A stretch of 64,000 nt of DNA from Mesostigma viride (Eukaryota > Streptophyta > Mesostigmatophyceae > Mesostigmatales > Mesostigmataceae): NCBI GenBank assembly GCA_009746045.1, contig RPFO01000026.1:3343108-3407107 (forward strand). The letters are read 5' to 3'. The position numbers and the translations under genes are program-made. Positions 7,631 through 61,772 of this stretch are shown here, piece after piece. Positions within the stretch are counted from its first letter, which is position 1. Each line of letters starts with the position of its first letter. A model generated the notes under the pieces. The model saw nothing but the letters and a program-made list of their open reading frames with translations. It made no database searches and was not told the DNA's origin.

Positions 7631-8115
7631 AGTTAGTCTCCATGCTTTGCTGTAGACTAAGTCTCAAAGGCATTGTGAATACAGCGTATGAATAAGCCTT
7701 GTAAACCTACGTTGGTATGTGAATATAAATACCACGTGGGCTATGCAGATAGGAATGCTAGTCGAGTCGCATACGTTTCCCTAGATAGGTACTTTGGGTA
7801 CTGGGGTACGTGACAGATGTCAGTACCCAGCATACGTAGTGTCCTGTCATTGGACAGTACTAGAGTATCCTAGATATAGGGACCGTACTGCAGCGTGCAT
7901 TGATCTGTGATCACACGATGCAGTGACTAGACTGCGACCTGTCATCGTGCGGCCTCGGGCCAACGGTCTGCACCCAACGGTCACTGGCGGCGCAGCCAGT
8001 GAGAGGAACGTTGATAAAGGGTAAACCTATTTTCTAATGAACCAAGCAATTCATTGCTCACAGCATACAGTGTTCTCAAGCAATATATCACGTCGTTCAT
8101 TTCTCATTCCTAACT
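7631..8115 (+). repeat. 5' LTR of element B
   Basis: Starts AGTTAGTCTCC and ends TTCCTAACT. A TATA-like TATAAATA lies near 7724. It repeats at 15267-15751 with the same length. No TGG-type primer site follows; the next bases are TGAATTTTATAAACGCTC. Confidence 0.92.
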
Positions 8116-9372: not shown

Positions 9373-10049
9373 ATGAACAAACAAGAAAAGCTGCGATTAA
9401 TTAACAATAACAATACCAACAACATGCCCTCACAGGGCAATAACAACAACAACAACCGGCCCCAACAGGGCAACAACAACAACAACAATAGGCAACCTGG
9501 CAACCCTGGAAGGGTCAGGTGCCTGAGGTGCTTCCAGACGGGGCACAGCCGCAACCAGTGCAACCACAACCCTACACTGGTCAACAATGTGGATCTCTGC
9601 CCAGGCTGCCACTACACGAGGCACAACCTGGCCAGCTCCAGGCAGCCGTGCAACAGGCCTCGCTACCCAAACAATGTGAGTTCTCTCACCTTGCTTACTC
9701 TGAGGATGATGATCTCATTACCATTGGGGATGGCAGCCAGGGCATAATTGATTTTGAGGCAGCAACCTTACTGTCCTCCCAACACCCTGTACTGGAACCT
9801 TACATAAAAGCACTAACCCCTACTGTTGACAACTCCATAGATATCAAGGAGCTTGCTCATCAGCTGCACCTAGCCATGGGTCATGAAACAGTGGCTGAGG
9901 AACTGGCCAGACGGCTGGGGGGTAGTAGCATGGGAAAACAACTCAGGAATGCAGTAAAACTGGCTAGACAACACTGTCAAGAATGTCAGTTCAATAGCCC
10001 CAAACCTCAAAAATGGCATACTGCAACTCCTTCCACCACTAGGGCATGA
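9373..10049 (+). pseudogene. Gag zinc-knuckle tail and INT zinc finger of element B
   Basis: An Asn/Gln-rich stretch (AAC repeats) leads into two cysteine motifs near 9515-9645: CLRCFQTGHSRNQC (CX2CX4HX4C) and a second CPGC...H...C. The frame then shifts near 9680 to EFSHLAYSEDDD, followed by an HHCC integrase finger (HLAMGH near 9866 and CQEC near 9977). It stops at 10049, just before the integrase core. Element C has the same double-knuckle layout in one unbroken ORF. Confidence 0.7.
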
Positions 10050-13000
10050 TAGTGGGGGATGTGATGCACATCAACAAAGATGTCCAACCCTACCTGATCC
10101 TAAAAGATTCATGGTCCAGGTTCACAGTAATGGAACCCCTACCTGGCATGTCTGCAGGGCAGCTACGTGTTGCACTCATGATTGCTTTACCCAGATTCTA
10201 CCCAGTTGACAGAATTTTGCTTGATCAACAATTTTCTTGTCTGACTGACCTGGAAGGGTGTGAAGCAATAGAGATTGCTGGGCTGGAAGATCATGAGGGT
10301 CAGGGGGTCATTGAAAGAACCATCAGATCTGTCAAAACCCTACTAGCCAAAATCCTTCCAAGGATGCTACTTCAGGGGTCTATTGTGACAGGGCACTCTG
10401 GTGTCATGAAATGTGCACAACCCTAAACATGAGACCTGTCTTGCATGCCAAGTGGGGTGAAGTAATCCCAGCAGGCCTGCAGGCAGGTGTATATCCCCCA
10501 GAGGTGATAGCACTGTACAACACTGCACGTGCACAAACCTCAGCAAAACTGGCAGAAAAAGATAAAACCCATCCCAGGCCAGTATTCCAAAAAGGTGATC
10601 AAGTTCTCTATTACAAGGAAAACAGCTTTGGTAAGGTTGGAACTTGGCTAGGTCCAGTTACCATCCGTGGATTTACCAAAAACAGCAAGACCGTGGAGGT
10701 CAAGCACAATATCAATGGGAAGCGTCACAGGGTGAGCTGTCATAGAATTAAGAAGTATTATTCTCCCATGGCAGACGTGCCTGGGGAAGAGTCTTTAAGC
10801 ATGGACTCACTACTTCTATCTGGCAACTCCAGCATGCCCAGCAGTAGCCCTGAGCCACCAATTACTGCTGTTGACAGCACCACAGCACCCTCTGTGAACC
10901 CTTCCACCCTCAGTGAAGCCAGGCCCACTTCACAACCTGGGGATTGCTTAACCAGGCACGAGGTAGCTGGGTTGGAAGCATTAGCTCAGCCCCAAGGCAC
11001 CAAATTGTCTGCCAACCCTCCCGCTCTGAGGTCAAGATTGGCAGTCGCCTTGCAAGCATTACACAGGTCACATAAGCAACAAGCTGCTGTGGCCGAAGGG
11101 TTGGCAAAAGTCTCAGCTGTGTGCACTAGTCAGGACCCCTGGACCCTGGCAATAGACACTCAGGCACAGGTCAGTGTGATCAGTGCACAAGCCATCCCTG
11201 GTCTTGAGATTGCACCTTCATTTTGGGCACGGGTGCAGGATTTCTCAGGCCAAAGCTCACTGGATGTAGTGGGACAGGTGATGCTCCCTATACTTGGTAT
11301 TCAGACACCCTTCCAGGTGGTGGAGGGGTACTCTGGTAACACCTTGTTGGGGGAACCTTTTGTATCCTATCCTGGGGTGCTTATCTCAGCTAATGAGCTC
11401 AGTGTCACAGGGGTGGGTGCAGTTCCTCTGGACCACTTTAAAATCCCTCTCTCCAGTATTGTCCCTGGTATGGATGCTGTCATCAAGGCAGTCAACACTC
11501 AGTATGCACCAGGGGAGATCCCTGATCTGGACAAGTTAGTGCACAGCCAGTTCCTCCATCCCTCAGCCTTTGGGCTGGGTAAGTGGGACATAGCCATGCA
11601 CTCACCCCACCAAATCTCCCACGTCATACAAGAATGCAAAACACAAAAAGGGTTTACCAAGTGGCTGATGGCCATTGTCCACCAAGCCAGGCAGGAATGG
11701 GTCCTGCCCAACCCCAAAAACCCTCAATACAAACCTCCTGTCACCCCTTCATGGGACGTGCCAGAGGGAGCCAAAAAGCTCAGATTAAAATTTGTTCTCA
11801 AACAAAAACCACAAAAAGTGGGCTCCCCAATCTTCCATGCCAGACCATGTGTCACAGAATTAAAGGGGACATCCACACTGCCAAAAGGGGAAACCTACAC
11901 ACCTGGGCTGCAACAAACCTCACTCAGGATCATGCTCTCCCTATTCCTCCACAACCTCAATGCAGGCCAAGACTATGTCTGCAAAGCCACTGATATTAAA
12001 AGGGCCTTCCTCAGGGGGGACCCAGAAAAGGCTGAATCTGTGTGGAAAGGGAAGGTGTACGTGGTAGACACCCCAGCTGTGTGGAAACCTTACATTGATG
12101 AGCCCCACCTTATCATCAACATTGGGGTGGAAGGGCTTGTCAGTGCCCCAAAATTTTCAGAGACTCAGCAGAGGAAGTATTCAAAAAGCTCAAGGCCACG
12201 TATGATGACCTGGACCCATGCTTTTTTGTTGTACCCACCCCCTCTGGACTGCTGCTCTTTGTGTGGCATGGAGATGACCAACTCATTTGTGGGCCTAGAG
12301 CTGAGGTGGAAACATTTATTCAGCAGGTCCAGGAATCATATGAGATTGGCAAACAGGTGGAATTGAGCACAACCCCCATCCAGTTCTGTGGCATCATGTT
12401 GCAGCTGCATAGGCAGCCAGATCAGTGGGTCTGCTCTCTCTCCCCTCCTGCAGAATATATCCAAGATTGTCTAGATCTGCTGCAGGACAACTACCTCCCC
12501 TTACACATGTGTGCCACTGTTCAGGGCAAACTGGGGTGGTGGTCAGCCATCTGTGGGGCTCCCTTAGCTGTCATCAGCAGGGTCACCCATGATGTTCTAG
12601 TCAAGATAAAATGCAGTCACATCAGGAAGTTGGTCAATGACTGTCCCCCCCTCATCCTCCATGGCCTGAATCTGATGGAAGACATCCACATCCAATGTGT
12701 CATGGACAGCTCCATGGAGAGCAGAACAATCAATCAGATGGGGGCACGGGAATCAGGGCTGTTTTTTCTCACCAACAGGTCAGATTACATGTCCCTCACT
12801 TCCTGGTACAGCAGGCTACACCGCAGAAAACCTGGCAGCAGCAACTCAGCTGAATGTCGTGCTGTGGTGTCTGCTGCATTGCATGCTCGTTCCCTGCAGC
12901 ACATGCTCACCTGGCTACAAACCCAGGCAGGCAGCACATGCAATGTCATCTCACATCTCTACACTGACAGCTTTTCAGTGATCAGTTTTCTAACCAAGAA

Positions 13001-13199
13001 ATCTGTTTCTGCTGCTGTCCACACTGACTTGGATTGGGTGATCCTCAAACAGGAGGCCACCTATTTTTCCAGCTGGACTCATGTGGATGATGAGGACAAC
13101 CCAGCAGACGCTCTAACGAAGCTGCGGGATGCTGCTGGCCAACAGTACCAGCTCCTCTTTCAGAACATGAACCCCTATGATATCAGAGTCAGTGTTTGA
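10046..13199 (+). pseudogene. pol of element B: INT core, retropepsin-like, RT, RNase H
   Basis: Integrase core: GDVMHI (about 10055), LLDQQFSC (about 10216) and GVIERTIRSV (about 10304), giving a D-D(29)E spacing. A second segment from 10411 holds the INT C-terminal region (QVLYYKEN...VTIRGFTK), then a retropepsin-like domain (AIDTQAQVSVI near 11150, TLLGEPFVSYPG near 11340), then RT with TDIKRAFLRGD near 11985. After a frame break near 12150-12250 come VWHGDDQLICG (12258), RNase H (MDSSMESR near 12700, SAECRAVV near 12845, YTDSFSV near 12960) and NPADALTKL near 13100. It ends at 13199. Breaks lie near 10045, 10400 and 12200. Confidence 0.85.
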
Positions 13200-27906: not shown

Positions 27907-27958
27907 GCGGCCCTACAAAGCTCAGGGACATACAGCCGCCATTCCTCCGGCTGGACAC

Positions 27959-30775: not shown

Positions 30776-30777
30776 CA

Positions 30778-31689: not shown

Positions 31690-31777
31690 TATCTGTTCAG
31701 TGGTGCGTTGCTCCAGGGGCGCCCTGGCCACCATACTTTTTCGAGTCATTGTTTCCAGCTTGTCCCACTAAGGGGGG

Positions 31778-33022: not shown

Positions 33023-33027
33023 GGGGA

Positions 33028-34503: not shown

Positions 34504-34519
34504 GACCGTTTAATTTCTC

Positions 34520-38371: not shown

Positions 38372-39275
38372 GTTACATCATAAGCTGGCAGAAGCTTGCA
38401 AGCAGGAGAAAAAGGGGAATCCCAGGCTACCTCTAAATGCAGTGACCTTAAACAAACGAGGAAAGAGCACGGAGTCTAGCACAGCACACGCCCCAGCCTT
38501 CCGCGGCAGAGGGCTATACAATAAGCACACGGAGGTAAACACCGTCAACACAGTCGGCAACAGCCAGACGGTATCCACCCCCACGACAGGTCAAACAACG
38601 ATGGCCGTCTCCGCGACGTCCATAGGCACCAACGACATTCACAACCTATAGAGGTACAACGTATAACAAGAACCCCCTACGCGTGCGGACCCGAAGAGAA
38701 AGCGAGCACGCCAGCTAGCCTTCCACAGGCATAGCTTGCAAAGAAAGAATCCTAACTAGGGGACGTACCATCTTCGATGACGTTAATCCCTCCTGAGCTG
38801 GCCGCCACCCGGTGTCGTTGAAGGCAAGCCCTGGCCGCCACTAGGTGTCGTTGAAAACAGGAGAGCTGAACGCTATCGTTGACAGCACCTCACCACAGGA
38901 CTATTGCTAGCAGTTGAGTAACTCTAGAGCCCTAGGATCTGGCTCTAAGTTCCCCATGTCCGTCCGCACGCCTTCCGCTAGCGTCCGCTAAGCCGCCGGC
39001 TATAATCCGGCGGTCCGATGCGGTCGACCGGTCTAAGGGCGGCGCCTAGGGCCGGCGCCACCTAGGCCCCAGTCCGGGGCCTTATCCGGGTCGGTACGGA
39101 CAGCTAGCTTGTCCCACGGTTACGGCTAACCGGATAGGGTTTGCTGGCTAAGACATAAACCAGTGGTTGGCCAGCTCCGACAGCAGTTCTCTGTGTTCAC
39201 CTTATCCCAAGCTCAACGTGACCGACCGCCATAGCTGAGCCGGTCGGGCTTTAACTTGTATTCATAAAAATCCCG
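38372..39275. other. No recognised gene or repeat
   Basis: It should contain the 5' LTR of the minus-strand gypsy and/or the 5' LTR and leader of element C, but I found neither. There is a two-copy 35-bp repeat, TGGCCGCCAC..GGTGTCGTTG, near 38800-38860. Confidence 0.4.
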
Positions 39276-41209
39276 ATGGCTTCCGGTACACGGGGCCGCA
39301 CGGGCGAACACACAGATACGCCAAGTGGCGAGGCCGCCGGGACCGTCCTGCCACGCTTTAGTGCGGACGAGGCCACGAGGTTGATGCAAACCCTCGTGGC
39401 GCAACCGGAACTGGCCAAGCAGTTCAAGCATTTGATGCTTGCTGCTGACGACGCACTGAATCGCGGCCCTCTGAAGCAAACGGAGGTGCCCGCTGATCTA
39501 CCTGCCGACTATACGGCGGACGACGCAGCAGATTTTCTGGCTGCTCTCAAGCGTCTGCGCGATGGACGCGCGGACAAAGATTCGGAGCTGATTGGCAAGT
39601 TCCGTGCAGTATTCTGCAGTACTACCAAGCACCCAAACATTGCCAATCTAGTTCGCATTGCGGACGACAACAAACAAACCTGGGAAGTTTTTTACAACGG
39701 TCTAGACGCCCACTTGTCGCGGTCTAAGGAAGAGGCCGACGAGCAAGCCTTCAACGATTTCGAGGGCTATGCAGTTAATAAGGCAAATTTGCCCGGGGCT
39801 GCACGTGATTTCCAGGTCTTCGTGCACAAGCACAAGCTGCTAGATACTCTCAAGCCCATTTTCCTGTGCAATCGATTTCTCAAGAAATGCGACCTCTCGT
39901 CGGATGTGCATCTGACCATAGCGACGGAACTCAAAAAGAAGAGTGCCGTCAGTTTCGACGAGGGCATGCTGTATTTGATCTCATGCTTCAAGAGTGCGCA
40001 GTCCAAGCCGACTGCCTCGGCCGCTCTGCCATCCCTGCGCAAGGTGGATACCGGCGCGTCTTCTTCTTCAGGCGCAGAGGCTCCAATCACGCGGTCGGAG
40101 CTTACGGCCATCCTGAAAAAGGTCGTCGGCCACGGCAACAACGGGGGCCAGCGAGGGCGCAAGCGCGGGCATGGTGGCGACGCCAAGCAGGGTGATAATC
40201 CCCCGGCCAAGCGGCAGCAGGGGGCGTCTACTGACCGCAAGCAACGCTGTGAGCGCTGCTTCGGACGTCGCCATGTCCGGGATGACTGCCGAGTTCGCCC
40301 GGACCTGGAGCTCGAGGACAACCTTTGCCGCAAGTGCCACGACGTTCTGCGTGGTCACAGCGTGGAGGCGTGCAAGGCCAAGCGCATCGTCGTCCACGGC
40401 ACACGCGAGGAGTGGGCAGAGCGACGGGCAGCACGAAAGTCAGGTGAGAGCACGCTCGATACCCCTTCTTTTGCTCAATGCGTCACGCTGAACCGGGCCG
40501 TCGTAGAGCCTGACGTCGTTCCTAAAAGCAACGTGACTGCATCCTCTGTCTCATTCCGTGATGTGCTCACGCAATCCGTTGATGCTGCTCTGGCTCTGTC
40601 GCGCCAGGATCACGTGCTTCCTGAGCACGGGTCTACAATGCGTGACCTAAGCACTGTGGTGTCTTCTAGGTCGGGTGTGTACAACGCCGAGCGACCAAGC
40701 ACTACTGCAGCACCCCAGCTAGATACTGGGGCGGTTGGGCCTATGAGGAATGTTGTGACAGTGCAAGAGAATGCTGGGCGGGCAGATGTTCTCGGTACAC
40801 ACCACCCTAGTGTGGATCTTCACATTGGCAAGGTGCTCACACGGGCGGCCTTTCGTGCAGCTTCTGAAGCTGCCCAGTTAGCCAATGTCACTACCCCAGC
40901 AGTCACCCCACCTGTTGAGAATCCTGACAATGCCACTGCACCTCAGGCTGTCACCCTGAAACTGTTAGCATACCAGATGCACAGTGCATACGGGCATGAG
41001 GCCCAAGCCGAGGTAGAGGGGGCACACATGTTGGGAGCACCTTTATACAACGAGCTGAAGAATGTGCGTGCTCAGTGTCCTGCCTGCATCAAGATCAGGA
41101 AGAAGTCGCGTAGGCGGCATGCCAAGACTCCACCCTTGGAGCGAGGGTACCTTGTGGGGGATGTCATGCACATGGAAGGGGGGGACACCTATTTCATAGT
41201 CAAGGATAG
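39276..41209 (+). pseudogene. Element C: fused Gag-integrase ORF, truncated by LTR D
   Basis: One unbroken frame of about 645 residues from ATG 39276. It has a helical Gag-like region, a Gly/Arg/Lys-rich linker, two zinc motifs near residues 321-370 (CERCFGRRHVRDDC and CRKCHDVLRGHSVEAC), a spacer, the HHCC integrase finger (HSAYGH and CPAC, residues about 568-605) and the integrase core start GDVMHMEGGDTYFIVKD. It then reads into a foreign LTR at 41210. No functional-looking protease lies between Gag and INT, which supports the INT-before-PR order of this clade. Confidence 0.8.
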
Positions 41210-41783
41210 TGTTACGTCGCGTAACTTTTGTTGTTGTTACGGACGTAAATTAGGTCCCTTGTTGCCTCAGCCATTCCGGAGCAGTTCGCTGACTTTCCTA
41301 GGCTTACGTGTAGTAAGGACCTTTTGGCCGGTCGGTACCGGGCCTTGTGACGTGGCACTTGTACAGTATGGTGGTTCGGTGCAGTCGCGCCGCGCTGCGT
41401 ACTTTAGTAGTGGTCCTTTTATCCTGCGTGTGAACCTTGTGGACGTGCGTTGGTCCTGTGTGCGAGGGTCGATGTCGGCCCGAGCATACACGCCTGTCGG
41501 CGATCATTTATGCAGCAGTTGTCCTTCGTGAATGGCACTCGGCGTGTGTTAAATGAATTAACACATATAGGCTTGGGTCACGGCAGTGTAGTATTGTTTC
41601 CTTCGTAGTACCCTGGTTTTATTCGGTATATGGCGTATTATAAGGGAATGCATTGAGAAGCAGCGTCGTCGCGTCCTAGGTCTTATAGCCAATATAGCTC
41701 CTCACTCCTCGGTAGGTGCCTCATCACTAGTTTAGGTAAGGTTAGGCGAGATGTTTGGGATAGAGTCGAGCCAGGACGTAACA
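41210..41783 (+). repeat. LTR D (gypsy-type), inserted in element C
   Basis: 574 bp bounded by TGTTACGTC and GACGTAACA. The TGTTACGTC/GACGTAACA termini are the same style as the gypsy LTR at 23057, but the body differs. TGGTAGCGG follows one base later (41785), a plausible primer site, so this is a 5' LTR. The interior stops at 41988, where A2 begins. Confidence 0.7.
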
Positions 41784-41988: not shown

Positions 41989-42610
41989 AGTTAGCATATT
42001 GGGGCACCAATGTGCTAGATGGATGCAGGTTGAGGAGACCTTTCCAACGCCGTGTCAACCGCCTAGAACAGACAAGGGACTAGAAAGTTATCAAGTCCCG
42101 AAGTACTGCCGACCGGTGGGCGAGGGCGGGGCACACTCAGGGCATAGTGGACAGGACACGTGGCAGGCCGTGCCTGCACAGGCTTAGCCTGTACTCTCAC
42201 GTGACTGGGACACAGTGTACTGAGGGCTCAACGGTACTGTGGCTAGTAGAAGCCAGTAAACAGCCAGCAGGTCTGCAAGGATGTAAGTCCTTGCAGGACT
42301 GTGGCAGGTCCTGTGCTGTCCTAGACACAGGATAGCCAGAGATTCCTGTATGCTGCCTGCAACGAGGATGCAGGGCAGCGATACGAGGCTCTGGCAATGT
42401 AGCGTTGCCCAGCGTTGCTCATGACCGAGGAACAAGGATGGAACGAGGTTGCATATAGCTCGAGGCTCAACGAGGCAACGAGCGTCTTCACACACGAACC
42501 TTGGTCGTCACGACGAGTGGCGAGCCTATCGAGGGTCGTAGGCCTGGTGTGAGGATAAAGGTTGCTAGCCAGCAGCCTAGGGTCATTCCAGCCGGCAAGG
42601 ACCAGGAGCT
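41989..42610 (+). repeat. 5' LTR of A2
   Basis: Starts AGTTAGCATATTGGGG and ends CCAGGAGCT. No TGG primer site follows (next CACAAGCTCTGCTG). Confidence 0.88.
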
Positions 42611-43802: not shown

Positions 43803-43856
43803 GCCTGAGTGGGTTCCAGCGGCCATATCTGCGTGTGTTTTCTGTGGTATTCTATA

Positions 43857-45206
43857 ATGCTTCGTAACACGCGCGGGGGCGGCAGCGGGAGCGGGGCGGG
43901 AGCGGGGGATGGCGGGGGTGAGGCAAGGGCAGACACGGGAAGCCCCGCCAACGTCGTGCCAGAGGGACAGGCAATCCCAACGGCAGAGGGCGTCAATGGC
44001 AGGAGGGCGTCCAACCGGAAGAGGAAAGAGGTGGCACAAGGGGAGGAGCGTGCAGGGTGGCCAACCGACGGCGTGGTGCTGACGGGGGAGGGCCAGACTG
44101 ATGCTGAACGGCAAGCACCTGGTAAGAGACCATGTGTGCCTCCGTCTGGTGTTCCTGCAGCTCATGTTCCTGCGCCATTAGCACCAGTAGGAGCTGCTGT
44201 CATTGGCAGTGACCCTCGTGCTTTGCCTGGGACTAGACCTCATATGAGTGCTGTGGCTGTGATGAATGGCCAGAAGCCTCTCAAGCCTCCTGTGGGACAG
44301 GAAGAGCTAGACAAGTGGTTGGAGGATATGGAGCTAGTTTCATGCTCTGTAGATCCCACTGTCAACCTTGTGCAGGTATTCCACACATCCACGACTAATA
44401 GGGATTCAAGTGAGAGGGTGAGGGACAAGGCTAGGCAGGCTGTCAAGGACAAGCTGACTTGGTCTCAGTTCCTAGAGGGCCTACGTCAGGAGTTTTCTGA
44501 TAAGGTACTCAACCTCACTAATCACTATAAGCTCAGCTATGATACCTTTGAGATCAAGGGCACAATAGCTGAGGAGCTGCAGCGGCTCACACGCATCAGG
44601 GAGAAGGGGGCCAAGCATGGCTTCAATCTGACTGATAGAGCAGTGGCAGATTACTTCCTGGATCGCATGGGGCTGAGTGTGGATGGGAGAAATGCAGCTA
44701 GGATGTTTGCTGATCAGACAGATGGGACGTGGCCAGCCTTGCAAAAGGTTATTTTCAATATCCGTCCATCTGACAATGCTGCTTGTAAGGCAATCCAGGT
44801 GACTGGTGCCCCTTCAGCCTCCGCTCATCAGGTCCATGGTGACGCCCCTGGGCAGGGTGCTCAGGGAGAAACCAGACCTAGTAGGCGTCAGAGGGCTAAC
44901 AGGCGCAGGCAGAATGGTAACCAGGGTGGCAAGGGCCAGCAGCAGGGATCCAAAGGCAAGGGTCAGCAGCAGGCTGGTGGTCACCAGGGTGGTCAGCAGA
45001 ACAAGGGTGGCCAAGGGCAAGGCAAGAGCCAGGGCCAGGGCACCCAGGCCAGTCAGAGCAGCCAGAACCAGGGTGGCCTGAAGAAGGCTGCTGCTGGGAA
45101 GGATGACAAGTGCTTTGGATGTGGCAGGACGGGTCATTGGCGACGTGACTGCCCAGACCAGGCCAAGTCTGCTGGAGCAGGTTCTGGCCAGGTGGGTAAG
45201 CCATGA
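43857..45206 (+). CDS. gag: Gag of A2
   Basis: 449 residues from ATG 43857. A Gly-rich start and a central helical region: PVGQEELDKWLEDMELVSC, VKDKLTWSQFLEGLRQEFS and TIAEELQRLTRIREKGAKHG, similar in layout to the Gag of element I. Then comes a long Gln/Gly/Lys-rich basic segment (44900-45080) and the zinc knuckle CFGCGRTGHWRRDC near 45112. The frame is intact. It ends at UGA 45204-45206 followed by CUU, and the pol frame continues in phase behind it. Confidence 0.88.
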   Translation: MLRNTRGGGSGSGAGAGDGGGEARADTGSPANVVPEGQAIPTAEGVNGRRASNRKRKEVAQGEERAGWPTDGVVLTGEGQTDAERQAPGKRPCVPPSGVPAAHVPAPLAPVGAAVIGSDPRALPGTRPHMSAVAVMNGQKPLKPPVGQEELDKWLEDMELVSCSVDPTVNLVQVFHTSTTNRDSSERVRDKARQAVKDKLTWSQFLEGLRQEFSDKVLNLTNHYKLSYDTFEIKGTIAEELQRLTRIREKGAKHGFNLTDRAVADYFLDRMGLSVDGRNAARMFADQTDGTWPALQKVIFNIRPSDNAACKAIQVTGAPSASAHQVHGDAPGQGAQGETRPSRRQRANRRRQNGNQGGKGQQQGSKGKGQQQAGGHQGGQQNKGGQGQGKSQGQGTQASQSSQNQGGLKKAAAGKDDKCFGCGRTGHWRRDCPDQAKSAGAGSGQVGKP

Positions 45207-47323: not shown

Positions 47324-48833
47324 CTTGGTGATTAGACACTCTGTGCAGCCAGGCTGACAGGGGGTTGAGCTATGCTCAGGCTGGAAACACACTACACCAT
47401 ATCTTTGGTCACTCTAAGCAGGCAGAGATGTTTGCTTGGAAGATTGGCAAGGAGCCTTTGCTAGAGGCCTGCAGTGCAGCTGCTCAGAATTGTGTCTCAG
47501 TGTCAGGAGAATGCTGTTCGCCTCCCACAGTCCCATGCCAGAGAACCTGCTAGAGAGCGGGGGGATATCCAGGTGGACATCCAACACATCAGGGGCATGT
47601 ATCTGTTGGTGGGGGTGGATAGGTTTAGCAGATATAGGTTGCTGACCATTCTTCCTGGAATGCAGGAGCATCAGCTGTTGATGGGTCTCCAGTCTTTGTT
47701 GCCAGGCTTTGGGGTGTACACCAAGGTGCAAGCTGACTTGCAGTTTGACTGCTTGATCAAGCTGGCTGACCAGCTTCCTTGTAAGTTGGTAGTGGTCCCT
47801 AGGGAATGCCATGGGCAGCAGGGAGCTGTAGAGAGATCTATACGTGAAGTAAAAACAGTGGTGCTAGCCGCTAAGAGTGTGCCTGTTGTGGCATCAGCTC
47901 TAGAGAAAGCAGCTTGGTGTAAGGGGATTGAGGAGCAGCTTAACCACAGGGTAACCTATTACTATGATGGTGTGGCAGTCTCTCCCCTGGCATTGCAGTA
48001 TGGTATGCTATCACAGGACGTGGTGGCAGCCTGCCTGAAGAAGGCAGACAGGGTGTTTTCCAGATTGAGGCGTAAGGACAAGGGTTGGAAAATGCTGAGG
48101 CCCCAGGTGGGACTGAGGGTCAGGATGTGGAAGGAACCGTCATTACCAGGCAAGCGTGGCAAGTGGCAAGATGGGCAGGTAACCCATGTTGAGGAAGCTA
48201 ACCATTCTTGTCTGGTGGCTTTGGAGAGTAATCCCAAGCACGTGTACAGGCTATCCTGGGCTCACGTCAAGGAGAGAAGGCCAACTGCAATCTGGCCTGA
48301 AGACGGCCCTGATCCTCCCTTGGAGGGAGATGAGCAGGATGAGAGCCAGGCAGCAGATGCTAACCCACCATGCTTGGATTATGGTCTGTCCTGGATGGAT
48401 GAGGGTGAGCAGGAGTCTGCTGAGACGTCTGTCACAAGGCCAGAGGTGGCCAGGGCTGCACCACAGTCCAGGGGGCTGCTTATGGCGGACATCATTCGAG
48501 CTCTGCAGAACAGCAAGCGTGATCCCAAGGTATCTAAGCTCACGGGATGGGGGTCATGTGGGGCACCAGCACTAGAAGTGGATACCAACTCACAGGTGTC
48601 CATTCTAAGGGTAGAGGATGCTGCAGGCTTGCAGTGGTCATCCCCTAGCTGCCTAGCTGTGTCTGATTTCTCTGGGAATGTGTCCATGAAGATCTTGGGA
48701 GAAGTGAGTGTGCCTATCCTGGGGGTGCCCACCACGTTTAGTGTGGTTGAAGGGTATCAGGGGCCTGCCATTCTAGGACAGAACTTCTTGTGCTTACCAG
48801 GGGTGAGGATATCCTCTGAGGAACTAGCATTAG

Positions 48834-50532: not shown

Positions 50533-51382
50533 TTAGAGGGGCAGGGCCGCCTTCCCTTGCAGAGATATCGCTACTCCCAGGGTCTTAGTGTGGCTGTAAG
50601 GGCTGTGAGGGGTCTAGAGGCAGAGGGTCCTGATACAAAGGAGCCCATTGCTGGGGACCTGCTGATCCTCCCTACTACGTTTGACCCACGTGAGTTGGGT
50701 GTGCAGAGGTACCAGATCCCAGGAACGAGTCCTGTACCTTGGCGCAAGCTAGTGGAGATGATGCAAAGCCCCAAGATGGCTAAGGCATGGACTCTTGGCT
50801 TTGTTGCTTCTGGGCATGAGTGGATAGTTGCCAACTGTGCAGAGCCTGTGGATGTCCTCCCTGAGGATCACCAGCTGCTCAGATTGATGTTTGTCCTCAA
50901 GCTCAAGGAAGTAGATGGCGTGCAGGTGCCACATGTCAGACCAGTTGTGACTGAGTACCATGGCACTGGACAGTTAGCAGATGAGGAGCTTTACACACCA
51001 GGGATGCTGCATGATACATGGAGGATTTTGTTGTGCATTTACTTGTCTTTTCTACAGAAGGGGATACCCTATAGCTCTGTGTTGGTAGATTTCAAGAGGG
51101 CTTTTCTTAAGGGTGATCAGCAGGAAGCACAGGATACTTGGCGCACAATACCCCCTTTCTTTGTTAAGGTGCCTGCAGTGTGGAGGGCAGAGCTGAAGAC
51201 GAGGTATTTGCGGATTCTCAAAGGCGTAGTAGAAGGCCTTAGATCGAGTCCCATCATCTGGAGGAAGAGCTTGGAGAAGTACCTCAGATCTGTCTGTGGT
51301 CTCTCAGTCTCTCCAGTTGATCCTTGTCTGTTTCAGGGTAGCTATGAGGGGCTGCCAGCATTTGCCTCCCTGCATGGTGATG

Positions 51383-51999
51383 AGTTAACGTAAAGGATTT
51401 ACGTTAGATGGATAGAGATTGTTACGCTCTTTCCAACGGCACCTTGAACGCCTCATTTGGTTAAGGAACGTAAAAGTTATGACGTTTCCTAGGCTGTGCC
51501 GACAGTACCCGGCGCGCCACTGTGGGCGCGTACGGACACAGGATGTACAAGTGTCACTTTGATAGTCCGCAGGACGTTGACAGGACTTGTACAGGACTTG
51601 ATGGTCAATTGATAGGTAGGCGTGCTGTAGCGCGCCAGGACCTATGAGACAATTGATGCTGACTAGTGTACGGATAGGTCCACAGGACTAGCCGTATGGA
51701 CAATTGATAGATCTGCGCGCCAAAGGCGTGCCAGAGTCTGTGTAATCAATTGATTGACAGTTCAGCTGTGACAGTGCAGCTGAATACTTGGACGCGTCCC
51801 TAGCAAGCTATATGAGTGACTTGGTCACACCGGGACGCTAGTTCTTGCGTGCACGTTCTCTTGGCACTGCGACCCTGTCGTCTGTGCTGCGTGCAGTCTT
51901 GGAAGTGACGTGACTTACGTCTGTGTTTCCTTGTTATTAATAAAGGCAACTTCCTGCAAGAACCATGGCGGAATTCGTGGCATTCTCACCCTCACAACT
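51383..51999 (+). repeat. 5' LTR of element I
   Basis: Starts AGTTAACGTAAAGG and ends CCTCACAACT. AATAAA near 51949. The next internal bases are CGTATTACACGCTCTG, with no TGG primer site. Confidence 0.95.
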
Positions 52000-52023
52000 C
52001 GTATTACACGCTCTGTTAAAAAG

Positions 52024-52650
52024 ATGCCAAATTCTGAAGAATTCCGGATTCCCGATGACGAGGAAATAGCCGCTCCGCCGGCTGGTCCTTCGTCAAGACC
52101 GACTGCGCCGTCGTGGCAGCAATTGCTCGACGAAGTTACGATCTCGCTCGACGAGCTTCATCGTCAACAGCGCGCAGCTCATCCATTGCTCGGGGATAAC
52201 CCCGAGGACCCCGATTTGCCAGCACTGGTGCCGGCAATCCGCAACCTGTTGGACCAGATTCGAAACATTTTATCGACATTTACGGTCCAGGTGCGGGGAG
52301 GTTTGCGGTCGGTGACCGAAGTCACGACTGCCATTGAGGAGTTGGACAACGTCCTCTCTTCACTCACCGGTTACCAGAGAAACCTGCAAAACTGGGCATC
52401 GCTACGCACGGGGGGCGCGCCGGCGGTGTCAACAAATTTGTTTCAAGATCTTGCGCTGCTATCGCTGCTCACTCGCGGCGTACGCAGTCGTGAGCGCCAG
52501 GTTTTAATTAACCTGGTGGCATTTCTCGCATCTGTGCGAGAGTGGATTCCCGCGGGGTGGGAATTGTTGACGATCTTTACACATCCTCTGCGCCTCGTCG
52601 CGCGTCGGCGCGTCGCAACTTACGCGGCGGGGAGCACACCGGTTGACACG
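52024..52650 (+). pseudogene. Pre-gag ORF of element I, truncated by E copy 3
   Basis: ATG 52024, about 209 residues: PNSEEFRIPDDEEIAAPPAG, an acidic/Pro start, then helical blocks (WQQLLDEVTISLDELHRQQ, IRNLLDQIRNILSTFTVQV, EELDNVLSSLTGYQRNLQ, VLINLVAFLASVREWIPAG) ending in a basic stretch. Its frame runs into the E copy. A frame after E (54294-54380, ELDMEDREFVYTYCDFRG) may be its tail. It is helical and possibly oligomeric; no family recognised. Confidence 0.6.
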
Positions 52651-54293: not shown

Positions 54294-54553
54294 TTAATAC
54301 ATACCGGTGCAGGTCCGGAGCTGGATATGGAGGATCGTGAGTTCGTATACACGTACTGCGACTTCAGGGGCCTTGACTACTAGTCGGCCTAATTTTCTTT
54401 TGCAGTACTCGTCGACATTTTTTTTGTCGAATTTTCAGCGGCAATTCGCGGGGGCGGCAGCGACACCGGCGCAGGCGGCAGTGACGACACAAATTTTGTA
54501 CATAATTTTCTGCTGCTTTGCTAAGGTGTTCTTTGAATAGCTTGTAGTGCAGG

Positions 54554-55672
54554 ATGGCTGAGGGACGCCGTAGCAAGGGCCCAGCCAGTGGGAATAATAA
54601 TGGGGGTGCTGGTAGTGGAACCGCTCACGTAGATGACGTGGGGCTTACCGGAGAGATTACCAACCTTCCTCACAATATTAATAATGCACAAGCTGTTCAT
54701 GGCTTTGATCTTACCACACAGGGTCTTTTAATTGTCAATCAGCTGCAGCCTGTAACCTCAGACTCCAAGCCTAAGCAGGCTGAAGAGTTTGTGGAAGGAT
54801 TGGAAGGGTTCCCTAGCTTGTACGGTGGTACAAATTACTATCAAATCTGGATAGGAAGTAGCACTTTTGGCAAGTGTACTGACCAGATTAAGGACCTAAC
54901 CAGGGAGTGCAAAAAGGCCAATAAGGCCTGGGCACTGTACGTGGCTGAGCTGAAGGAGCTGCTGGAAGACCAACGCAAGAAGGTCGGCATCCATTGGCAG
55001 GACAAGTATCAAGGGTGGGAGGTCAAGGGGGACCTGATCCAGAACTTTCTCAACTATTGTAAGATGGTTGAGGAGGGCAGGGCTCACGGCTTTAATGTCG
55101 CTGATAACATAGCCCTAACCAACTGGCTCAAGGTTTCTGGGCTGGATAAGGCGACACGTGGCTCCTTAAAAGTCATGTGTGCCCCACACTCTACCCTGAA
55201 GGCCTACAAGGTCATCATTAAACAAGCACTCGAGGCAGAGGAGCTGTTTGAGGGTGGAGTGCCAGCAGTGAAGGCTACCCAGGCAGGCGGGCGTACCCAG
55301 GGTGGCTCCAAGACGTCTGAGGCTGACCGAAGCCAAGGAGGGCGTAGGGGCAACCATAACAAGCGCAAGGGAGATCATTCACCTGATTCTGACAGGAGGT
55401 CACACTCCAAGTCGGTGTTCAGGCGGGTGGGTGGTCAGCCCAAGCAGGGCAACGCGTCTGACAATGGGGGCAGTGGCCAGGGCAAGTCCAAGATACAATG
55501 CTACCTGTGCAAGGGGTGGGGGCACATCAAGAAGGAGTGTCCCAGCTTCAAGAAGTCCCAGGGCCAGGGCAGCAACAAGAATAACAACAACAACAACAAG
55601 AAGAACAACAACAAGTCCCAGGCAGGCCAGCCTTCAAAGGGCAGTCAGCAAGAAGACAACAAGGAGCAGTGA
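54554..55672 (+). CDS. gag: Gag of element I
   Basis: 372 residues from ATG 54554. The N-terminal part has VHGFDLTTQGLLIVNQLQ and QAEEFVEGLEGFPSL. The helical core includes NKAWALYVAELKELLEDQRK, QNFLNYCKMVEEGRAHGFNV and LKAYKVIIKQALEAEELFEG; the HGFN(V/L) block is shared with A2 Gag. A basic Arg/Gly/Ser-rich region then leads to the zinc knuckle CYLCKGWGHIKKEC near 55500 and an Asn/Lys repeat tail. It ends at UGA 55670-55672, followed by CUG and an open frame in the same phase. Confidence 0.9.
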   Translation: MAEGRRSKGPASGNNNGGAGSGTAHVDDVGLTGEITNLPHNINNAQAVHGFDLTTQGLLIVNQLQPVTSDSKPKQAEEFVEGLEGFPSLYGGTNYYQIWIGSSTFGKCTDQIKDLTRECKKANKAWALYVAELKELLEDQRKKVGIHWQDKYQGWEVKGDLIQNFLNYCKMVEEGRAHGFNVADNIALTNWLKVSGLDKATRGSLKVMCAPHSTLKAYKVIIKQALEAEELFEGGVPAVKATQAGGRTQGGSKTSEADRSQGGRRGNHNKRKGDHSPDSDRRSHSKSVFRRVGGQPKQGNASDNGGSGQGKSKIQCYLCKGWGHIKKECPSFKKSQGQGSNKNNNNNNKKNNNKSQAGQPSKGSQQEDNKEQ

Positions 55673-55675
55673 CTG
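55670..55675 (+). promoter_or_regulatory. Candidate readthrough stop UGA CUG between gag and pol
   Basis: The 47 codons from 55673 to the next ATG at 55814 are open and in phase with both gag and pol. A2 has UGA CUU here. The conserved UGA CU context suggests a Gag-Pol fusion made by readthrough. Confidence 0.65.
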
Positions 55676-58600
55676 TCTGAGGCAACCCCTACACACCTTA
55701 ATTCACCCAAGGGGGAGGCCAGGTGCTCCAATGCAGATTTTATATCTGGGCAACAAGAGGGTGATCTCCAGGTTCAGTGTGGCCCCAGGTCACCTGGAGA
55801 GGTACAGGTTCCTATGAAGACGTCCTTGACAGCTGGTGCAGCTGTAAGAATGTCTGACCCCATGCATCCTCGTGCTGGGCACGAGGGTGGACCTCTCATT
55901 TTGAGAGAAACCAATGTACAACCACAGAGGGGTGTGAAGGCCTCTGGTGGTATGCATGTGGTCCCTGCTGGCGGTCCAGGTGTTGGGCATGAGCAGGGTG
56001 ACTCAGGCTCTGAGTCAGAACAGGATGGAAGTCAGCATGGTGATGCTGGACAACCTGACAGCACAGTCCTGACTGTGCCAGGGACTGCTTCCTCTGTGTA
56101 CCAGGAGTTGGGTGCCCGAATCCACAACATGTTTGGGCATGCCACTTCTCTGTCAAACAACTTTGCCTTCCGTATGGGCAGGGCACCCCTTCTTAAGGCG
56201 TGTCAGCAAGCTGCCTCACGGTGTAAGTGCCAGTTGTCCTCCAACAAGCCCAGGAAATCACATGCCAAAGCTCTACCTCAGAGCATTGGTGATCTGCAGT
56301 GTGATATCCAACACATCAGGGGCATGCAACTGTTGGTGTGCGTGGACAGGTACACGAAATACAAGGTGCTGGAGCATTTACCTTCTATGAAGAACAGGTA
56401 CTTGCTGGCTGCCCTGCAGAATGTAAGAGCCAAGTTTCCTACCACAAGGATCCAGGTGGACATGCAGTTTCAGCATCTCAAGGGTGATCCTACCCTTCCT
56501 GAGTTGCTGGTTACACCTAGGGAGGCTCATGGGCAGCAGGGTGCTATCGAGAGGGCAATCCAGGAGGTCAAGAAATTGATCATCTCTGAAGACTGGGTAC
56601 CCTTGTCTGCACCTGCACTTGTCAGGAGTGCATGGCTGAGGAACGTGGAGCAGCAGCTGAACAGCAGGGTTAACTTCTACTATGATGGAGTTGCTGTCAG
56701 CCCAATGGGTCTATATCATGGCCTGTGCCCACCACATGTGCTGGAGGGCTGGAAACATGCTGCACATGTCACCTTTGCCAAGCTGAGGGAGAAGGACCGG
56801 GGTTGGAAGATGCTGGAGCCACAAGTGGGTCAGAAGGTCCTAGCTTGGAAGGAACCTAGCCTTTATGGCAAACGTGGTAGCTGGAGTCCTGGGGTGGTTA
56901 CCCAGGTTGATGAAGCTAGCCACGCATGCTTGGTCAGCATGGAGGACGAACCAAAGCATGTACACCGGCTGAGTTGGTCATATGTCAAGCCTAACCTGAT
57001 GAATGAGGGCAGTCAGGCACAAGGCTCACAGGATCTGCAGGATTTTCAGGTCCCAGGTGACATCACTGACGCAACGACCACATCTGTTGCAGGGGAATCT
57101 GTCAGCCCTGGCCAGGTTGCAGAGGTACTTGTTGAACAGGCTGCAAGGTCAACAGCTGGGGAGTCAACTGTCAAGCCCAAGGCACTAACCAAGCCCAGGG
57201 GGACAAGTTTGGCTGGATTGATTGGGGCTCTACAAAGGGCCAAGAAGCAGCCCAAGGTAGCCAAGCTCAGGTGGCATGGCAATCTGGGGCTGGACACTGC
57301 CTTAGAGGTAGACACTAATTCTCAGGTTTCCATCATTGGGACCAGGGCTGCAGCAGGGTACAGCATGTCTGAACCCAGCTATCAGTTTGTGTCTGACTTC
57401 AGTGGCGGGGTACACGTGAAGGTACTGGGTGAGGTATTCATTCCTATCCTTGGACAGGACACTGCTTTTTGTGTCTTGGAGGGCTATCAAGGACCTGCTC
57501 TTCTGGGGCAGAATTTCCTATGCCAGGATGGGTAGTGATCACGTCCTCTCTCCTGACTAAGGAAGGGGCTGGTCAGGTCCCACTGATTAATTTCAGGACC
57601 ACTCACCTATCACGTGCAGTAACCAGGTCGGTTAAGCGTGTGCAAGTGTGCCAGGGGCAGGAGCCCTTGGTTGATGACCTCATACTGCCAGCTGCTAGTC
57701 ATCCAAGCAGTTTGGGCATTGGTCCTCACTCACTTGCTGGACACAGCCCTATCAACTACCAAGGCCTGGTGAAGCTCATGTCCTCTCCCATTATGTGTCC
57801 CCAGGTCACACTGGGTCTGATTAAATCTGGGGAGGACTGGATCTCCAAGAAATGCGTGGAACCTGTCAATGACCTGCCTCCTGCACGACGTCTACTCAAG
57901 CTCAAGTTTGTCATCAAGATGAAGGAGGTGGACGGGGTCAAGGTACCACATGTCAGGCCAGTGCTGAATGAGTTCAAGGGTACTGGTGAGTGCACTGCTG
58001 AGGAGTTGTATACCCCTGGCATGCTGCATGATACTTGGAGGCTGCTGCTGTGTGTATTTCTAGGCCTTCTCAACAAGGGCTTGGACTATGGCTCAGTGGT
58101 GGTAGACTTCAAGAGGGCATTTCTGGAGGGGATGCAGATGTGGCACAGGAAAAGTGGGAGGGCAAGACGCCTTTCTATGTTAGGGTGCCTGCTGTATGGA
58201 AAAGGGACATCCACACGGAGTTCCTTAAAATCCTCAAGGGCCTGGAGGGCCTGAGGTCAAGTCCAATAATCTGGAGGGAGACTCTCAACCGTTTCCTGAA
58301 GGAGCATTGCAACTTGAAGGTCTCTCCTGTAGACCCCTGTCTGTTTCTGGGGCAATGGGAAGGCCTGCCAGTGTATGCTTCGCTGCACGGGGATGACCTA
58401 CATCTGATAGCTCCCACGTCGTGGCTTAAGGAGCTGATCTCCATCATTAAGTCCAAGTTTCCTCTGGGTAGGGAGCAATGGCAGGTGGAGAATGAGCCTC
58501 TGCTGTTTGTGGGCATGGAGGCCACACTGGTGAAGAAGGGGGGGAGTGGCGTATGCTGCTGGTGGGGGGCAATGATTATCAAGAGACCCTCATTAGCAAG

Positions 58601-59296
58601 CTTCCTCCAACCATCACACAGGCACTGTGTCCCATGGTGAGGGGCATGGTTGCTTGGGTGGCAGGCATTTCCAGGCCAGACCTTATGGTCATAGCCAGGT
58701 TGCCTGATGACATGCTGGTGGAGCTAGGGTCTGCCAAGGTGGCTGATCAGGTCAGGGCTTCATCTGGCATTCTGTTGTCTGCAGTGGATTTATCACAACC
58801 CATTTGCATGGAGCTGTATGTGGATAGCTCAATGGACAGCAGGCAGGTCTCCAAGGTCAGGGGCAGGGCTGCAGGGCTCTTTGTGCTCAGACAGGAAGGC
58901 CTGGGGAGTTTGGTGAGCTGGTTTAGTCGCCTGCACAAACGGGTGGCTGTCAGCAGTGATGTGGCAGAATGCAGGGCTATTTGTGAAGGCATTCACACAA
59001 GCCTTTATCTGAAGGAGTTGCTTCATCAGATGACTTCTAACACTCCTTGGCCACTTCAGGTTACCACTCTTCTAAAAACAGACTCCATGGGGATGGTGCA
59101 GTTTGTGCACAGGCAGATGGCCAGAAGTAGGGACTTGGATTATCTCCTTCTTAAGGAGTTGTCCTCCTTGGCCAATATTGAGCATATCCCTGGGGTTGAC
59201 AATCCTGCTGATGCTTTGACCAAGCTAGTGCAGAAGGCAGCAGTGCAATACAAGGTTCTTCAGTCTCTGATGGACCCATCTCAGCAAGCTGTCTAA
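55673..59296 (+). pseudogene. pol of element I: INT, PR-like, RT, RNase H
   Basis: Frame one (to 57535): a spacer, HHCC finger (IHNMFGH near 56119, RCKC near 56220), INT core (CDIQHIRG near 56300, VDMQFQHL near 56456, GAIERAIQEV near 56540; D-29-E), an INT C-terminal region (LEPQVGQKVLAWKEPSL), then PR-like (VDTNSQVSIIG near 57310, ALLGQNFLC near 57500). RT: VDFKRAFLEG (about 58105), DPCLFLG (58330), LHGDDLHLI (58384). RNase H: YVDSSMDSR (58815), AECRAICEG (58970), TDSMGMV (59082), NPADALTKL (59205). It ends at TAA 59296. Three breaks (near 57525, 58130, 58543) are each one missing G. Confidence 0.88.
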
Positions 59297-60246: not shown

Positions 60247-60863
60247 AGTTAACGTAAAGGATTTACGTTAGATGGATAGAGATTGTTACGCTCTTTCCAA
60301 CGGCACCTTGAACGCCTCATTTGGTTAAGGAACGTAAAAGTTATGACGTTTCCTAGGCTGTGCCGACAGTACCCGGCGCGCCACTGTGGGCGCGTACGGA
60401 CACAGGATGTACAAGTGTCACTTTGATAGTCCGCAGGACGTTGACAGGACTTGTACAGGACTTGATGGTCAATTGATAGGTAGGCGTGCTGTAGCGCGCC
60501 AGGACCTATGAGACAATTGATGCTGACTAGTGTACGGATAGGTCCACAGGACTAGCCGTATGGACAATTGATAGATCTGCGCGCCAAAGGCGTGCCAGAG
60601 TCTGTGTAATCAATTGATTGACAGTTCAGCTGTGACAGTGCAGCTGAATACTTGGACGCGTCCCTAGCAAGCTATATGAGTGACTTGGTCACACCGGGAC
60701 GCTAGTTCTTGCGTGCACGTTCTCTTGGCACTGCGACCCTGTCGTCTGTGCTGCGTGCAGTCTTGGAAGTGACGTGACTTACGTCTGTGTTTCCTTGTTA
60801 TTAATAAAGGCAACTTCCTGCAAGAACCATGGCGGAATTCGTGGCATTCTCACCCTCACAACT
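60247..60863 (+). repeat. 3' LTR of element I
   Basis: 617 bp, apparently identical to 51383-51999. Followed by TGATG and then the rest of the A2 RT. Confidence 0.95.
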
Positions 60864-61772
60864 TGATGATCTGCATCTCCTGGGCCATCCCACTTGGCAA
60901 GAGTTGACTCTGGCCAGGATCCAGAAACGGTTTGAACTGGGTAAGATCCAGTACATGGTTGAGAATGAGCCCATGGTGTTTTGTGGAATGCAGGCGACCT
61001 TGGTCCAACAGCAGGGTACATGGTCCATCCAGCTGGAGGGTGGTAAGGATTATCCTCAGCAGATCATAGATGCCTTGCAGGAGCCCATCACCCAGGCCAG
61101 ATGTGCAACAATACGAGGTATGTTGGCATGGCTGGCCAGCATTTGTGCTCCTGACCTGTTGGTCCTGAGTCGGTTGACCGATTCCCAACTGGTTGAGGTG
61201 GGTGCTGAGAGAGTGCAGTAGAGGCTGTTCGCATGTCTCCCCCTCTCATGCTGGGTCCTTTGGATTTGTACAGGCCTTTTGACATGATGCTCTATGTGGA
61301 CAGTTCTATGGATAGTAGGAAGGTCACAGAGGTCAGGGGCCGTGCAGCAGCATTAATATCCCTGGTGCAGGAACAGTCCTCTCTGGTCTGCTGGTACAGT
61401 CGGTTGCAAAACAGGGTAACTCCCAGCAGTGACATTGCTGAGTGCAGGGCAATCTGTGAAGGGCTTCATACTGCTCTTTACTTGAGGGAGCTATTTTACC
61501 AGCTATGTCAAGTGGCTTCCTGTCGGTTGCAGATGCACACACTGGTAAGAACTGACAGCATGGGCATGGTGCAGTTTGTGCACAGGCAGCTGGCCAGGAG
61601 CAGGGACCTTGATTATTTGTTGCTCAAGGAAATGTCTTGCTTAGCTAACATTGAACATGTGGCTGGCGTGGACAACCCTGCAGATGCTCTCACCAAGCTG
61701 GAGGAGAAGGCTGAGCTGCAATACCCTTTGCTTCGTGGGCTCATGGCCTCCAAGGGGGGAGGGCCAGAGTAG
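60864..61772 (+). pseudogene. pol of A2, second part: RT thumb and RNase H
   Basis: Continues from the interrupted HGDD box: DDLHLLGHPTWQELTLA, ENEPMVFCGMQATLVQ and AWLASICAPDLLVLSR. A frame break near 61210 is a two-base AG gain in GAGAGAG. RNase H then reads LYVDSSMDSRKVTEV, SDIAECRAICEG, RTDSMGMVQFVH and NPADALTKLEE, stopping at 61772. Confidence 0.88.

What the first reader, a model, noticed from the sequence alone, without database searches (positions are those of the whole stretch)
54554..59296. LTR retrotransposon clade with the order Gag - INT - protease - RT - RNase H
In elements A, A2, B and I the integrase core comes first, a retropepsin-like domain follows it, and RT and RNase H come last. 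Copia is PR-INT-RT-RH, gypsy is PR-RT-RH-INT, and gmr1-like gypsy moves INT but keeps PR before it. Element C shows Gag running straight into INT in one frame with no credible protease between. Four copies with protein-level divergence (B is distant) make rearrangement of a single copy unlikely. I do not know of a described clade with this order.
Basis: partly seen in the sequence, partly recalled or inferred. Interest (0 to 1): 0.88.

Follow-up and report, generated by a model that had tools for sequence, protein, structure and literature searches.

The report
Retrotransposon clade with rearranged enzyme order
In what is very probably the green alga Mesostigma, several families of copy-and-paste DNA elements carry their protein-cutting domain after the integrase instead of before it, an enzyme order that I found described for no other group of such elements.

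Summary
Elements A, A2, B and I read integrase (INT), retropepsin-like domain (PR), reverse transcriptase (RT), RNase H (RH), with no credible protease between Gag and INT. It is not decay: the same order lies in one unbroken frame in a genomic copy of another family (J, locus L050, 1,336 aa) and in a database protein from another genome (P0010, 1,214 aa). In P0010 Pfam places rve, gag-asp_proteas and RVT_2 in that order, all below cut-off. The INT model matches retroviral integrases. The low-confidence PR model matches retropepsins in all 50 listed rows, none at E<=0.001. PR is under purifying selection. RT is Ty1/copia-type (RVT_2 above cut-off in J). PR reads DTN (A, A2, B, P0010) or DTQ (I, J, P0008), never DTG. 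The host is very probably Mesostigma viride. Seven text searches found no paper with this order; a large plant survey says it discarded elements with unexpected order. I read it as a new lineage of copia-type LTR retrotransposons with PR moved or replaced. Open: whether DT[N/Q] is active; no RT tree against references was made; element C cannot place PR.

The parts
51383..51999 (+). 5' LTR of B (ends AGTT...AACT); 5-bp target duplication TGATG at 51378-51382
52024..52650 (+). first ORF of B behind the LTR, interrupted by a 1.7-kb repeat; possibly the N-terminal part of Gag (inference)
54554..55669 (+). B Gag with zinc knuckle at 55499-55540
55670..55672 (+). in-frame TGA between Gag and Pol of B; TGA in 29 of 30 loci, the 30th not covered
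56120..57000 (+). B integrase: zinc motif, DDE core, C-terminal domain (end approximate)
57290..57532 (+). B retropepsin-like domain, DTNSQVS...ALLGQNFL
57840..58750 (+). B reverse transcriptase, in two frames; HGDD at 58386 (limits approximate)
58800..59296 (+). B RNase H (start approximate)
60247..60863 (+). 3' LTR of B; target duplication TGATG at 60864-60868
41989..42609 (+). 5' LTR of A (3' LTR 62708-63328; 620 of 621 nt identical; 3' LTR end unclear)
43809..45203 (+). A Gag, zinc knuckle 45111-45152
47395..48400 (+). A integrase (zinc motif and core in different frames)
48570..48832 (+). A retropepsin-like domain (DTNSQ 48578, GQNFL 48776)
50540..51384 (+). A reverse transcriptase, first part, resumed behind a 1.7-kb repeat and cut by B
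60864..61772 (+). A reverse transcriptase, last part, and RNase H, resumed behind B
1..2999 (+). A2: part of INT 1-577, PR 962-1273 (DTNSQ 1013), RT about 1555-2363, RH to 2999; contiguous at the DNA level, several frames
7631..8115 (+). 5' LTR of I (3' LTR 15267-15751; 483 of 485 nt identical)
9864..10900 (+). I integrase (zinc motif 9864, first Asp motif 10052), in three frames
11130..11412 (+). I retropepsin-like domain (DTQAQ 11152, GEPFV 11350)
11668..13196 (+). I reverse transcriptase (HGDD 12267) and RNase H, in two frames
39255..41528 (+). C: Gag running into an INT zinc motif and core start in one frame; later domains not in the window

Best explanation
These elements are a lineage of LTR retrotransposons with a Ty1/copia-type RT whose polyprotein order is Gag - INT - PR - RT - RH. 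The retropepsin-like domain most likely does the job of the usual protease: two Gag-Pol chains bring two PR domains together, and the dimer cuts the polyprotein on both sides, INT upstream and RT-RH downstream, inside the assembling particle. In family B, Pol would be made by reading through an in-frame TGA after Gag; in family J, the last part of Gag and Pol share one frame. Shown here: the order, its presence in several families, the INT fold, the PR fold (weakly), selection on PR, near-identical LTRs of A, B and I. Inferred: that PR is active with DTN/DTQ in place of DTG, dimer formation, cleavage sites, TGA read-through. The origin is inferred too: either the copia-type protease was lost and a gag-asp/Ddi1-like retropepsin gained between INT and RT, or the original protease moved.
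For: Order in four window elements. One unbroken natural frame in J, L050:1-4008, no stop: zinc knuckles at aa 100 and 128, INT zinc motif 223-262, D 281 region, D 334 region, E 361 region, PR 652-724, RT 862-1031, RH 1167-1305; RVT_2 37.8 bits, cut-off 31.6. P0010: rve 214-265 (E 0.15), gag-asp_proteas 557-628 (E 0.086), RVT_2 751-923 (E 0.014) in one protein, with no D[ST]G anywhere and its single D[ST][NQ] in PR. P0010's best match in this genome is 63% identical; 38 scored places (of 10,017 first-look candidates), each in a 1,196-aa open frame without stops, 37 covering residues 12-1213 and 1 covering 38-1213. PR fold; INT fold. dN/dS A-A2: PR 0.17, RH 0.23, INT end plus linker 0.35. No D[ST]G in the J Gag stretch L069 or in the about 70 residues from knuckle to INT of L050. 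LTR identity 618/618, 620/621, 483/485; 89 of 89 scored B INT-PR stretches 100% identical.
Against: PR matches are weak: Pfam gag-asp_proteas in 3 of 6 members of the PR alignment (best E 0.016) and in P0010 (E 0.086), all below cut-off; no PR hit in A or B. PR model pLDDT 55.6, no Foldseek match at E<=0.001; no PDB sequence match at E<=10; hhalign to the window's gypsy protease not significant. The glycine of DTG, conserved in known retropepsins (recalled), is missing in all 7 members read. D[ST]G triplets do occur before INT in A (3), B (1) and C (2); I judged them not credible by eye. Element C is uninformative. No RT tree. The 89 identical copies are one burst. rve is below cut-off in all members scanned.
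Confidence: 0.75

Rival explanations
1. The order is real, but the PR-like domain is a retropepsin fold that has lost catalysis and serves as a scaffold or dimerisation module; the polyprotein is cut by a host protease or by another, unrecognised element protease.
For: The triplet is DTN or DTQ in 7 of 7 members read; in other retropepsins the glycine is needed (recalled).
Against: Asp and Thr are invariant in the six aligned sequences, the domain is under purifying selection, and no other protease was recognised in the pieces scanned with Pfam.
Confidence: 0.27
2. Several independent rearrangements of ordinary copia elements inside one genome, or mis-assembly, rather than one clade.
For: The elements differ strongly: I is 29-31% identical to the A/B pieces; the assembly is from PacBio reads and the window is a nest of insertions.
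Against: The same order in A, A2, B, I, J and in P0010, which is only up to 63% like anything found in this genome; the linker, PR motifs and RT start align between all of them; unbroken frames in many copies.
Confidence: 0.08
3. A known but, to me, unfindable family (for example in Repbase or a subscription paper) already has this order.
For: Repbase and most subscription journals could not be searched.
Against: 0 papers for seven forms of the order against 15 for three canonical forms; the plant survey discarded unexpected orders.
Confidence: 0.15
4. The PR-like region is no protease-derived domain at all, and the elements simply lack a recognisable PR.
For: Weak Pfam and Foldseek scores, low pLDDT.
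Against: All 50 listed rows in two structure comparisons are retropepsins with the Asp in register; the only retropepsin-type Pfam family that comes up does so in 4 different sequences over nearly its whole length.
Confidence: 0.05

Closest known systems
Ty1/copia (Pseudoviridae), incl. the Osser lineage of plant classifications
   Same: LTRs, CCHC Gag, RVT_2-type RT, INT upstream of RT, RH last
   Different: copia is GAG-PROT-INT-RT-RH (PMC6317226, passage); here PR follows INT. RT motif HGDD rather than YxDD and LTR ends AGTT...AACT rather than TG...CA (usual forms recalled).
gmr1-like Ty3/gypsy (recalled, not tested)
   Same: INT upstream of RT
   Different: gypsy-type RT and PR still before INT (recalled); here RVT_2-type RT and PR after INT
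Ty3/gypsy, BEL/Pao and Troyka
   Same: retropepsin, RT-RH and INT modules
   Different: PR-RT-RH-INT order (PMC12440569, passages); the window's own gypsy element on the minus strand (PR 34509-33901, RT 33028, RH 29385, INT 27661) shows that order
Ddi1 / retroviral retropepsins
   Same: fold of the PR-like domain by model comparison
   Different: DTN/DTQ instead of DTG (usual form recalled); position behind INT in a transposon polyprotein

Membership tests
Ty1/copia (Pseudoviridae) | RVT_2-type reverse transcriptase | tested here: met
   J copies 37.8 and 38.0 bits, cut-off 31.6; below cut-off in A, B, I, P0006, P0010
[quoted passage not shown]
   PR-like domain lies between INT and RT in A, A2, B, I, J, P0010; no credible protease found before INT
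Ty1/copia (Pseudoviridae) | RT phylogeny inside copia | not tested
   no reference set at hand; the RVT_2 search of the genome did not complete
Ty1/copia (Pseudoviridae) | LTR ends TG...CA (rule recalled) | tested here: not met
   B and I read AGTT...AACT; in A only the 5' end AGTT is clear
Ty3/gypsy incl. gmr1-like | RVT_1-type reverse transcriptase | tested here: not met
   no RVT_1 match at E<=1; control: window gypsy RT 1.6e-21
Ty3/gypsy incl. gmr1-like | PR upstream of all other Pol domains | tested here: not met
BEL/Pao | PR-RT-RH-INT order | tested here: not met
   INT comes first
Retropepsin (clan AA) | retropepsin fold | tested here: met
Retropepsin (clan AA) | D[ST]G active-site triplet | tested here: not met
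   DTN or DTQ in 7 of 7 read: A, A2, B, I, J, P0008, P0010
Retropepsin (clan AA) | Asp-dependent peptide cleavage | not testable with these tools
   needs purified protein
DDE integrase of retroelements | HHCC zinc motif plus DDE core and fold | tested here: met
   motifs in alignments; 407 Foldseek matches at E<=0.001, all 50 listed retroviral integrases; Pfam rve only below cut-off

The most novel reading that the evidence does not exclude
A superfamily-level lineage of LTR retrotransposons in streptophyte algae in which the copia-type protease was lost and a different, gag-asp/Ddi1-like retropepsin with an unprecedented DT[N/Q] active site was gained between INT and RT. It would be an active aspartic protease without the canonical glycine, and it breaks the rule that in LTR retroelements the protease comes first in Pol.
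Probability: 0.4. Interest if true: 0.85.

Novelty: new variant of a known kind. Interest (0 to 1): 0.74.

Why it matters
Domain order in Pol is the textbook criterion for sorting LTR retrotransposons, and annotation work uses it as a filter; one large plant survey says it removed elements with unexpected order. An abundant, recently moving lineage that breaks the protease-first rule would show that the order is not fixed by polyprotein processing, and would be a natural test of where a retroviral-type protease can sit. The DT[N/Q] triplet makes the need for the DTG glycine testable in elements that have evidently moved recently.

Tried and rejected
Single-protein homologue search with B INT-PR: none of 7,994 scored candidates at E<=0.001. 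The profile search gave 4 hits, all in transcriptome or genome sets of EukProt. The J-RT search (322 candidates) gave 2; P0011 had no Pfam hit, is unlike the elements except for an RH-like stretch near its end, and was dropped. PDB sequence search with the PR profile: nothing at E<=10. With the INT profile: 6 weak hits (best E 0.039), 5 of them integrases. hhalign of PR against the window's gypsy protease: probability 0.6, E 0.1, not significant, although it lined up IDTQ with VDTG. The viral structure library gave no match at E<=0.001; a Ddi1-type peptidase came first (E 6.5e-3). IMG/VR scan with P0007: 4 stretches matched a pattern, none a relative.

My first protease pattern was too strict: it found only I and missed A, A2 and B. 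The plain D[ST]G scan of the same spans (frames of 80 aa or more) gave 7 hits: 3 in A, 1 in B and 2 in C before INT, and 1 in I in another frame. I judged them non-credible by eye and folded none. The nearest to a real motif is C at 40722, LDTGAVGP. L050 has two D[ST]G triplets, at aa 387 and 502, both behind the DDE core in INT, and a stray DTQ at 564; the Gag stretch L069 has a DTQ in a helical-looking part. A primer-binding site was looked for by eye only, without result. No target duplication was found for I, and the 3' LTR end of A is unclear. An RT tree was planned and not made. Whether P0008 occurs in this genome, and what follows INT in family C, could not be tested: the searches did not complete.

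P0006 and P0009, filed under Prorocentrum lima and Alexandrium andersonii transcriptomes, match element I at 86-100% by piece. I take that as likely cross-contamination and do not count them as evidence for other hosts.
Full report
WHERE IT IS. The window is G000:C887:3343108-3407107 of a 439.9-Mb, 2,243-contig genome. A protein that its source names jgi/Mesvir1 (P0007) matches this genome at 100% over all 343 residues. The published Mesostigma viride NIES-296 assembly is 442 Mb in 2,363 scaffolds from PacBio, Illumina and optical data (PMC6947507, passages seen). That paper reports 60,339 LTR retroelements as the largest part of the repeats (27.9%); a term search found neither 'copia' nor 'gypsy' in its main text.

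ANATOMY. Self-comparison resolves a nest. Element A spans 41989-63328 with 621-nt LTRs (620 identical). Inside its RT sits element B, 51383-60863, with LTRs identical over 618 aligned nt and a 5-bp duplication TGATG. 1.7-kb repeats sit in A between PR and RT (48830-50535), in B behind its first ORF (52650-54298) and in I (13417-15112). Element I spans 7631-15751 (LTRs 483 of 485 nt identical); no target duplication was found for it. A2 is a relative of A from 1 to at least 4344, cut by the window start. In A2, INT, PR and RT are contiguous at the DNA level, so the repeat in A is secondary. LTR ends are AGTT...AACT in B and AGTTA...TAACT in I; A's LTR begins AGTTAG and its other end is unclear.

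ORDER IN THE WINDOW. B: Gag 54554-55669 with CCHC; in-frame TGA; then one frame, 55673-57532, with the INT zinc motif, DDE core, C-terminal domain, a linker and the retropepsin-like domain; then RT and RH to 59296 in other frames. A, A2 and I have the same order. Pfam hits of single domains are weak: rve E 0.017 (B) and 0.049 (A); RVT_2 E 0.0013 (B), 0.0021 (A), 0.25 (I); gag-asp_proteas E 0.077 (A2) and 0.18 (I), none in A or B; RVT_3 for RH, 0.033 (A) and 0.17 (A2). So the lineage is divergent. The same library finds the window's ordinary gypsy element on the minus strand at once, PR 3.1e-10, RVT_1 1.6e-21, RNase H 4.4e-35, rve 6.1e-9, in the order PR-RT-RH-INT.

IT IS NOT DECAY. In the genome, the B INT-PR stretch was scored at 89 places, all 100% identical over 481 residues. 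Only the best candidates of 6,801 are scored, so this is a lower bound, and it is one recent burst. By my count 36 of the 89 lie in a 1,208-aa open frame. P0007 belongs to a second family, J: 118 scored places at 97-100%, open frames up to 1,826 aa. The J copy L050 gives 1,336 aa without a stop, from the zinc knuckles (aa 100 and 128) through INT (zinc motif 223-262, DDE about 281-369), PR (652-724) and RT (862-1031, RVT_2 37.8 bits, cut-off 31.6) to RH (1167-1305). P0010, a 1,214-aa protein from an ENA contig of 6,224 bp, shows rve, gag-asp_proteas and RVT_2 in that order in one chain, all below cut-off. Its best match in this genome is only 63% identical. That family, K, was scored at 38 places, all in 1,196-aa frames without stops, covering P0010 residues 12-1213 (37 places) or 38-1213 (1 place); I did not read K's letters. 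So P0010 very likely comes from some other genome, source unnamed.

NO PROTEASE BEFORE INT. In J the gap from the last zinc knuckle to the INT zinc motif is about 70 residues. Neither that gap nor the Gag stretch of another J copy (L069) holds D[ST]G. P0010 has no D[ST]G at all and one D[ST][NQ], in PR. D[ST]G triplets do occur in frames of 80 aa or more before INT in A (3), B (1) and C (2); none is followed by retropepsin-like sequence in my reading, and none was folded. C has the only LDTGA.

THE INTEGRASE. AlphaFold2 model mean pLDDT 59.7, most core blocks 74-86. Foldseek gives 407 PDB matches at E<=0.001; the 50 listed are retroviral integrases and intasomes, best E 2.6e-10.

HOW IT WOULD WORK. 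Gag-Pol packs into a particle; PR domains of two chains dimerise and cut INT off upstream and RT-RH off downstream; reverse transcription and integration follow. Family B separates Gag and Pol by TGA in one frame: 29 of 30 loci read CAG TGA CTG there and the 30th was not covered. These copies were picked as best matches and are nearly identical, so they are one observation. Read-through is inferred. In L050 no stop lies between the zinc knuckles and INT. The PR-active reading is the likelier one because the elements move and PR is constrained; an inactive scaffold is the main rival.

COMPARISON. [quoted passage not shown] That survey says elements with unexpected order were in every case removed as likely mispredictions, which may be why such a lineage stayed unseen. 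PMC12440569 (passages) gives RP, RT, RH, IN for gypsy, BEL and Troyka. PMC3248453 (passages) puts INT between protease and RT in copia. Searches for the new order: searches gave 0 papers for seven hyphenated forms, as control, gave 15 papers for three canonical forms; searches listed nothing that describes it by title and start of abstract. By RT the elements are copia-type; by order they fail the copia definition. I therefore call them a new variant of a known kind.

LIMITS. No RT tree against named references; no canonical copia from the same genome (the RVT_2 search did not complete); C unresolved; PR activity untested; Repbase not searched.

Noticed in passing
13417-15112, 48830-50535, 52650-54298: 1.7-kb repeats (94-96% alike) that look like non-autonomous DNA transposons: inverted ends CCCCTAAATGG...CCATTTAGGGG, flanked by TTAA in the first copy and TTAG in the second; the left end of the third is not seen. 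Perhaps piggyBac-like. A 68% relative lies reversed at 20808-21852.
   Followed up: partly
29383-32520: A short LTR element (LTRs 29383-30126 and 31777-32520, 744 nt, 100% identical) inside the gypsy element, with a Gag-like ORF carrying CCHC and a weak Retrotran_gag_2 match: possibly a Gag-only, non-autonomous element.
   Followed up: partly
27209-34509: Ordinary Ty3/gypsy element on the minus strand with a DTGAS protease and order PR-RT-RH-INT, used as an in-window control.
   Followed up: yes
33027-33908: Abutting inverted repeat with 441-nt arms (98% complementary), also a 338-nt tandem array, in the gypsy region; foldback or assembly artefact.
   Followed up: no
51383, 60863, 7631, 15751: LTR ends AGTT...AACT rather than the usual TG...CA, in both B and I.
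   Followed up: partly
P0006, P0009 against window 10130-12539: Transcriptome proteins filed under Prorocentrum lima and Alexandrium andersonii are 86-100% identical to element I by piece; probably cross-contamination. P0008 (P. lima) is only 55% alike over 242 columns and its source is unclear.
   Followed up: partly
57532-57535; loci L009, L010, L013, L014, L015, L018, L019, L022: The frame of B ends right behind PR, at 620 aa, in 8 of the 29 loci listed (L019 is the window copy), while others run on: a sub-lineage with a shared frame change, or a recoding site.
   Followed up: no
L001, L002 (contig C2011): The two best rve matches of the genome lie on contig C2011, in transposase-like and other bacterial-looking ORFs: perhaps bacterial contamination in the assembly.
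   Followed up: no
16819-18003: RVT_1 ORF (E 1.3e-23) of non-LTR look (YADDTTLFE), with a 152-nt inverted repeat just upstream (15749-16199).
   Followed up: no
B 58386, A2 2091, I 12267, L050 aa 1023: The RT catalytic motif reads HGDD in B, A2, I, J and P0010 instead of the usual YxDD (usual form recalled).
   Followed up: no
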